Shown here piece by piece: positions 34,976 to 35,566 of a stretch of 35,566 nucleotides of DNA (within the stretch, counting starts at the first letter, position 1; every line of letters starts with the position of its first letter). Under the pieces are notes generated by a model, which saw nothing but the letters and a program-made list of their open reading frames with translations, did not search any database and was not told where the DNA came from. Source of the stretch: an uncultured Eubacteriales bacterium (GTDB taxonomy: Bacteria; Bacillota; Clostridia; Peptostreptococcales; Anaerovoracaceae); contig ONJG01000044.1 of assembly GCA_900318105.1 (NCBI GenBank), positions 1 to 35,566 of the forward strand. The letters run 5' to 3'. The position numbers and the translations under genes were made by a program.

Positions 34976-35566
34976 ATGGGAAAAGTAATAGGAATTGACC
35001 TTGGTACAACCAACAGCTGCGTAGCAGTACTCGAAGGCGGAGAGCCTACGGTTATCACTAACTCCGAGGGTGCAAGAACCACCCCGTCAGTGGTTTCGTT
35101 CACAAAGAGCGGAGAGAGACTCGTAGGCGAGACAGCCAAGAGAATCGCAATCACAGAGCCAGAAGGCACTGTGGCATCAATCAAAAGACACATGGGCGAG
35201 GATTACAAAGTAAATCTTCGCGGAAAAGACTACACACCGCAGGACATCTCAGCCATGATCCTTCAGAAACTGAAGGCAGATGCTGAGGCTTACCTCGGAG
35301 AGAAGGTAACAGAGGCTGTAATTACAGTTCCTGCATACTTCTCAGACGCACAGAAGCAGGCTACAAAGGATGCCGGTAAGATCGCAGGACTTGATGTAAA
35401 GAGAATCATCAACGAGCCTACAGCCGCATCACTCGCATACGGCCTCGATAAGGACACCGGAAGCCACAAGATCCTGGTTTATGACCTGGGCGGCGGCACA
35501 TTCGATGTATCAATCCTCGAGCTCGGCGACGGAGTATTCTAAGTACTCGCAACAAACGGCGACACC
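34976..35566 (+). CDS. dnaK: DnaK (Hsp70) chaperone, 5' part, with in-frame TAA at codon 189
   Basis: The first 188 codons are the start of the Hsp70 ATPase domain: GIDLGTTNSCVAV, SVVSFTKSGERLVGE, VITVPAYFSDAQKQATKDAG, RIINEPTAASLAYG and VYDLGGGTFDVSILELGDG. At codon 189 (35540-35542) the codon is TAA, where DnaK normally has Glu or Asp (GVFEVLATNGDT). The next eight codons in the same frame read VLATNGDT, exactly the expected DnaK sequence, up to the end of the window. A single base change (GAA to TAA) explains it. It may be a sequencing error or a real nonsense mutation. The remainder lies outside the window. AGGAGG precedes the ATG. Confidence 0.93.

What the first reader, a model, noticed from the sequence alone, without database searches (positions are those of the whole stretch)
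35540..35566. In-frame TAA stop in dnaK where Glu is expected
The dnaK frame runs GVF, then TAA, then VLATNGDT in the same frame. DnaK proteins read GVFEVLATNGDT or similar here, so one G-to-T change in a GAA codon would make the stop. hrcA and grpE upstream are intact. A truncated DnaK of 188 residues would lack most of the ATPase domain and all of the substrate domain. Options are a sequencing or assembly error, a recent knockout, or suppression/readthrough. Recoding is unlikely, since TAA ends many other genes here.
Basis: partly seen in the sequence, partly recalled or inferred. Interest (0 to 1): 0.72.

Follow-up and report, generated by a model that had tools for sequence, protein, structure and literature searches.

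The report
Contig-end error in split dnaK
A stop codon sits 24 bases before the end of this assembled piece of DNA, inside the chaperone gene dnaK; the rest of the gene lies on another piece of the same genome and public full-length proteins match both parts, so the stop is most likely a sequencing or assembly error, not a dead gene.

Summary
The in-frame TAA at 35540-35542 is in the sequence. The window is the whole of contig C83 of a draft genome of 92 contigs, estimated 77% complete, and the TAA is followed by only 24 bases before the contig stops. The missing part of dnaK is at the end of contig C51 of the same genome: one base, then LGGDD..., open for 429 codons, ending TAA TAA, with dnaJ behind it. 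The two contig ends do not overlap. Both pieces with one codon between them make 627 residues. A public 627-residue DnaK seen on 11 contigs is identical over residues 1-188 (188 of 188) and over the C51 part (429 of 429), with Glu at the stop's position. In 31 of 35 congeners the dnaK found covers this column, and its frame runs open past it. Of 109 relative loci, 108 could be scored at the codon: 107 Glu, 1 Gln. Likely cause: the contig's last bases rest on few reads, one of them wrong; no reads were available to show this. Readthrough or recoding is not supported. A real knockout allele is not formally excluded. Interest is low.

The parts
34976..35566 (+). 5' part of dnaK, cut by the contig end; remainder is G000:C51 9988..8699 (minus strand)
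   Evidence: HSP70 profile positions 1-210 here and 221-599 on C51
35540..35542 (+). in-frame TAA at a column where relatives read Glu; most likely a contig-end error
   Evidence: Glu in 107 of 108 scored relative loci and in 118 of the 120 proteins listed, the other 2 (422 and 360 residues) not matched by my pattern and apparently fragments
35543..35566 (+). 24 bases between the TAA and the contig end, still coding VLATNGDT as in relatives
34299..34946 (+). grpE, intact
   Evidence: Pfam GrpE positions 3-165 of 165
33159..34262 (+). hrcA, intact (TTG start as listed by the ORF tool; it lies inside the CIRCE repeat, and in-frame ATGs at 33198 and 33204 are more likely starts)
   Evidence: Pfam HrcA positions 1-214 of 215 and HrcA_DNA-bdg 1-72 of 79; sequence
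33146..33172 (+). CIRCE inverted repeat upstream of hrcA, the HrcA operator (name and role recalled)
   Evidence: exact match to TTAGCACTC-N9-GAGTGCTAA; mean 0.02 expected by chance with up to 3 mismatches

Best explanation
The TAA lies 24 bases before the end of an assembly contig that cuts dnaK in two, and it is most likely a single wrong base read into thinly covered last bases of that contig. Shown: the stop, its distance from the end, the open remainder of dnaK plus dnaJ on contig C51, the lack of overlap between the two contig ends, and public full-length proteins identical to both pieces. Inferred: that coverage fell at this point so that one or few reads set the last bases, that those public proteins come from the same species, and that the organism's own gene has a sense codon there and makes a normal 627-residue DnaK from a hrcA-grpE-dnaK-dnaJ operon.
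For: The window is contig C83, 35566 bases, whole. C51 (9989 bases) ends in the rest of dnaK, open for 429 codons, with dnaJ behind it. The two ends share no overlap, unlike the C40/C65 ends, which overlap by 85 bases; this fits a gap in coverage rather than a branching point (inference). 188 + 1 + 8 + 1 + 429 = 627, the length of P0002, which matches 188 of 188 and 429 of 429 residues, has Glu at residue 189 and stands for 11 contigs, the longest 115562 bases; P0003-P0005 (4 more contigs) have 188 of 188, Glu, and 427-428 of 429. In 30 of 35 congeners dnaK lies in one open frame of 599 codons or more, and in one more (G014) on two contigs, the second open for 508 codons; the 24 genomes of the same order all have it in frames of 608 codons or more (its 'stops inside' counts residues 1-188 only, so the open frame is the evidence). 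28 congeners were read directly at the codon, and each has GAA or GAG (loci L007-L032, L034, L035). Against 16 congeners the window has 18 columns with a base that none of them has: 14 third positions, 3 that make up one codon (35072-35074), and the first base of the TAA. dnaK is also cut by contig ends in congeners G014 and G017.
Against: No reads were available, so coverage and base support at 35540 are unseen. A control on 44 contig ends (both ends of 22 contigs) gave no clear excess of stops near ends: in 12 of 44, C83's own included, the best frame closes 17-83 bases before the end. Six of the other 11 read towards the end; of these one is a full-length gene, one (RadC-like, end of C55) departs from its family near the end, and four match no family. 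One public protein of 188 residues (P0203, 84% identical) ends at the same column; whether by a stop or by its contig's end cannot be seen, and fragments of many lengths are in that list.
Confidence: 0.93

Rival explanations
1. A real nonsense allele: the sampled population contains cells whose dnaK is knocked out by one base change, and the contig carries that variant.
For: One base separates the TAA from the GAA that 73 of 108 scored relatives have. A strain variant could also have broken the assembly at this point (inference).
Against: The rest of the gene on C51 is open over 429 codons and dnaJ is intact; public proteins that match both pieces are full length; in the 31 of 35 congeners whose dnaK covers the column the frame is open; the stop falls in the last 27 bases of the contig. 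Loss of dnaK is costly in most bacteria (recalled).
Confidence: 0.04
2. The TAA is real and is read through, by a suppressor tRNA, recoding or programmed readthrough, so that full-length DnaK is made.
For: The reading frame continues after the stop with the expected residues.
Against: TAA ends 10 of 20 plus-strand ORFs picked as likely genes in the window, grpE among them, and dnaK itself ends TAA TAA on C51. Of 19 tRNA matches in the genome, 18 gave an anticodon, none for TAA; the 19th is a partial match at a contig end that ARAGORN does not call. The genome is incomplete, so a missing tRNA cannot be excluded. The RNA around the stop is folded less well than most shuffles (z = 1.36). Public proteins that match both pieces have Glu there.
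Confidence: 0.01
3. C83 and C51 come from two different strains binned together, or C83 ends in a chimeric or strain-variant tail.
For: A contig end inside a very conserved gene is where strains and species mix in metagenome assembly (inference). C55 shows a tail that departs from the expected RadC.
Against: P0002 matches both contigs at 100% protein identity, the contamination estimate is only 0.49%, and the 24 bases after the TAA encode the expected residues, so at the protein level only one codon is odd.
Confidence: 0.02

Closest known systems
DnaK (Hsp70), HrcA-controlled hrcA-grpE-dnaK-dnaJ operon of Bacillota (operon type recalled)
   Same: Gene order, CIRCE repeat before hrcA, HSP70 profile covered 1-210 on C83 and 221-599 on C51
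   Different: Split over two contigs, with one in-frame TAA 24 bases before the end of the first
Genes truncated at contig ends of draft (likely metagenome-assembled) genomes
   Same: Gene cut by the contig end, remainder on another contig; two congeners (G014, G017) also have dnaK cut by a contig end
   Different: Here a likely wrong base near the end also makes a stop, so the fragment looks like a finished short gene

Membership tests
DnaK (NCBIfam NF001413 / TIGR02350) | profile match over the whole family length | tested here: met
   Positions 1-208 (C83 part) and 219-623 (C51 part) of 625 in NF001413; neither piece alone reaches the cut-off of 648 bits (324.1 and 609.8), as expected of a split gene
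Real pseudogene or knockout allele | same stop seen in independent sequences of the species or genus | tested here: not met
   Glu in P0002-P0005, which stand for 15 contigs; open frame past the column in the 31 of 35 congeners that cover it. The other 4 do not cover it: G017 is cut, G019, G020 and G029 gave no orthologue
Real pseudogene or knockout allele | further decay in the gene or its operon | tested here: not met
   429 open codons on C51, intact dnaJ, grpE and hrcA
Stop-codon recoding | codon not used as an ordinary stop, or a matching tRNA | tested here: not met
   TAA ends 10 of 20 window ORFs picked and dnaK on C51; no such anticodon in 18 tRNA genes read of 19 matches, in an incomplete genome
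Contig-end sequencing or assembly error | low or single-read support for the base | not testable with these tools
   no reads available
Contig-end sequencing or assembly error | position at a contig end inside a gene that continues on another contig | tested here: met
Contig-end sequencing or assembly error | excess of broken genes at other contig ends of this genome | tested here: inconclusive
   44 ends of 22 contigs; one further likely broken gene (RadC-like, C55)

The most novel reading that the evidence does not exclude
A natural clostridial strain carries a true nonsense mutation in dnaK and lives without full-length DnaK, with the open downstream part kept only because the mutation is very recent.
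Probability: 0.04. Interest if true: 0.35.

Novelty: not a real feature. Interest (0 to 1): 0.04.

Why it matters
It matters only as a warning: a stop within a few dozen bases of a contig end should be checked against the rest of the assembly before it is called a pseudogene or readthrough. Here the other half of the gene was in the same genome.

Tried and rejected
Second dnaK: the other HSP70 match in the genome (C31, 638 residues) is weak (34 bits in Pfam) and covers profile positions 137-374 only, so it is no replacement.

Readthrough signal: no tRNA for TAA among those read and no unusual RNA fold.

Contig-end control: of 44 ends (22 contigs), the best frame closes 17-83 bases before the end in 12, C83's own included, and runs open to the end in 32. 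Of the other 11 closed ones, 6 read towards the end and were given to the family profiles: one is a full-length DeoR-type regulator (natural stop), one a RadC-like gene that departs from its family before the end, four match no family (the sixth, C65 left end, against Pfam only). The 5 that read away from the end were not followed. No clear excess.

Search with the 188-residue piece for independent truncated copies (8000 scored, best 120 listed): of 120, 116 were read at the column (107 Glu, 2 Ala, 2 Arg, 2 Asp, 1 Leu, 1 Gln, 1 ending there) and 4 did not match my pattern.

A first regular expression scored 0 of 109 loci because of a counting slip; it was corrected (108 of 109; L068 not scored because its stretch ends too early, though its letters printed read GAA). 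The 109 loci are not all independent: L010 and L036 print the same letters here, and one search kept only the best 80 of at least 588 matches.

Full report
Observation. The dnaK frame starts at 34976 and reads 188 codons to GVF, then TAA at 35540-35542, then VLATNGDT to the last base, 35566.

Context. The window is the whole of contig C83 of a draft genome with 92 contigs, 1475433 bases, estimated 76.6% complete. The stop is therefore followed by 24 bases and then by a contig end. A search of the same genome with the HSP70 profile gave four matches: two adjoining stretches of C83 (positions 1-74 and 100-219), C51 8855-9988 minus strand (221-599) and a weak match on C31. C51 is 9989 bases long, so its dnaK also runs to a contig end. 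The skip between profile positions 74 and 100 fits the shorter N-terminal loop of Gram-positive DnaK (recalled); the public full-length proteins P0002-P0005 have residues 1-188 the same.

The other half. Read from its end, C51 has one base and then LGGDDFDNALMNF, the residues that follow GDT plus one residue in relatives. It stays open for 429 codons, ends GAA TAA TAA and is followed by dnaJ. The last bases of C83 and the first of C51 share no overlap. With one codon between them, the count is 188 + 1 + 8 + 1 + 429 = 627 residues.

Relatives. A protein search with the C51 part (7997 proteins scored, best 120 listed) found P0002, 627 residues, seen on 11 contigs: 188 of 188 residues equal to the window's piece, Glu at 189, 429 of 429 equal to the C51 piece. 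P0003-P0005 (4 contigs) have 188 of 188, Glu at 189, and 427-428 of 429. That they belong to the same species is inferred from this identity. Of the 120 listed, 118 have Glu at this column and 2 shorter ones did not match the pattern. Of 35 congener genomes, 30 have dnaK in one open frame of 599 codons or more, one has it over two contigs (G014, the second piece open for 508 codons), one is cut by a contig end after residue 28 (G017), one gave only a 46% identical relative (G019), and two gave nothing (G020, G029). So 31 of 35 cover the column, and in those the frame runs past it. The 24 genomes of the same order have it in frames of 608 codons or more. Of 109 loci read for the codon, 108 could be scored: 73 GAA, 34 GAG, 1 CAG.

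Mechanism. The best reading is a contig-end error. The assembly lost dnaK between GDT and LGGDD without leaving an overlap, which fits a gap in coverage; the last bases before such a gap rest on few reads, and one wrong base is enough. This cause is inferred, because no reads were available. dnaK is very conserved, and two congeners also have it cut by contig ends. Compared with 16 congeners the window has 18 columns with a base that none of them has: 14 third positions, the three positions of one codon (35072-35074, shared with P0002 at the protein level since residues 1-188 are identical), and the first base of the TAA.

Rivals. A true nonsense allele cannot be formally excluded, but nothing supports it: the rest of the gene and its operon are intact and no copy examined has the stop, apart from one fragment that ends there for reasons that cannot be seen. 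Readthrough or recoding is very unlikely: TAA is an ordinary stop in this genome, including at the end of this dnaK, none of the 18 tRNA anticodons read (of 19 tRNA matches) is for TAA, and the RNA around it is not specially folded. A mixed-strain tail is possible but only one codon is odd.

Against. The contig-end control (44 ends) gave no clear excess of broken genes near ends, and one fragment 84% identical to the window's piece ends at the same column (P0203). Neither changes the verdict.

Verdict. The stop is in the assembly, but most likely not in the organism. Low interest.

Noticed in passing
window 994-1020 and 33146-33172: Two exact CIRCE repeats (TTAGCACTC-N9-GAGTGCTAA; 0.02 expected by chance). 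One precedes hrcA; the other precedes a run with a beta-CASP metallo-hydrolase, glutamate racemase, an ORF without a family hit, trigger factor, clpP, clpX and lon, which suggests that HrcA may also control this protease cluster.
   Followed up: partly
window 7591-9918 and L005 5078-7357 (minus): Two full-length Lon proteases in one small genome, both over the TIGR00763 cut-off of 608.05 (923.6 and 752.6 bits); the second lies behind dnaJ on C51.
   Followed up: no
window 22181-28297: A 2038-residue protein with CshA-type adhesin repeats and Muc_B2 domains, likely a surface protein.
   Followed up: no
L004 1174-3090 (contig C31): A 638-residue protein with a weak HSP70-like ATPase region (profile 137-374) and no match to the substrate-binding part.
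   Followed up: no
L166, last 430 bases (contig C55, right end): A RadC-like JAB domain match stops at profile position 71 of 121 and the frame departs from the family before a stop 74 bases from the contig end; possibly another damaged contig end or a real truncated gene.
   Followed up: partly
P0172 (199 residues, 1338-base contig): A protein identical to the window's DnaK over 86% of the 188-residue query and then apparently in another frame, likely a further damaged assembly of a dnaK of the same or a very near species.
   Followed up: partly
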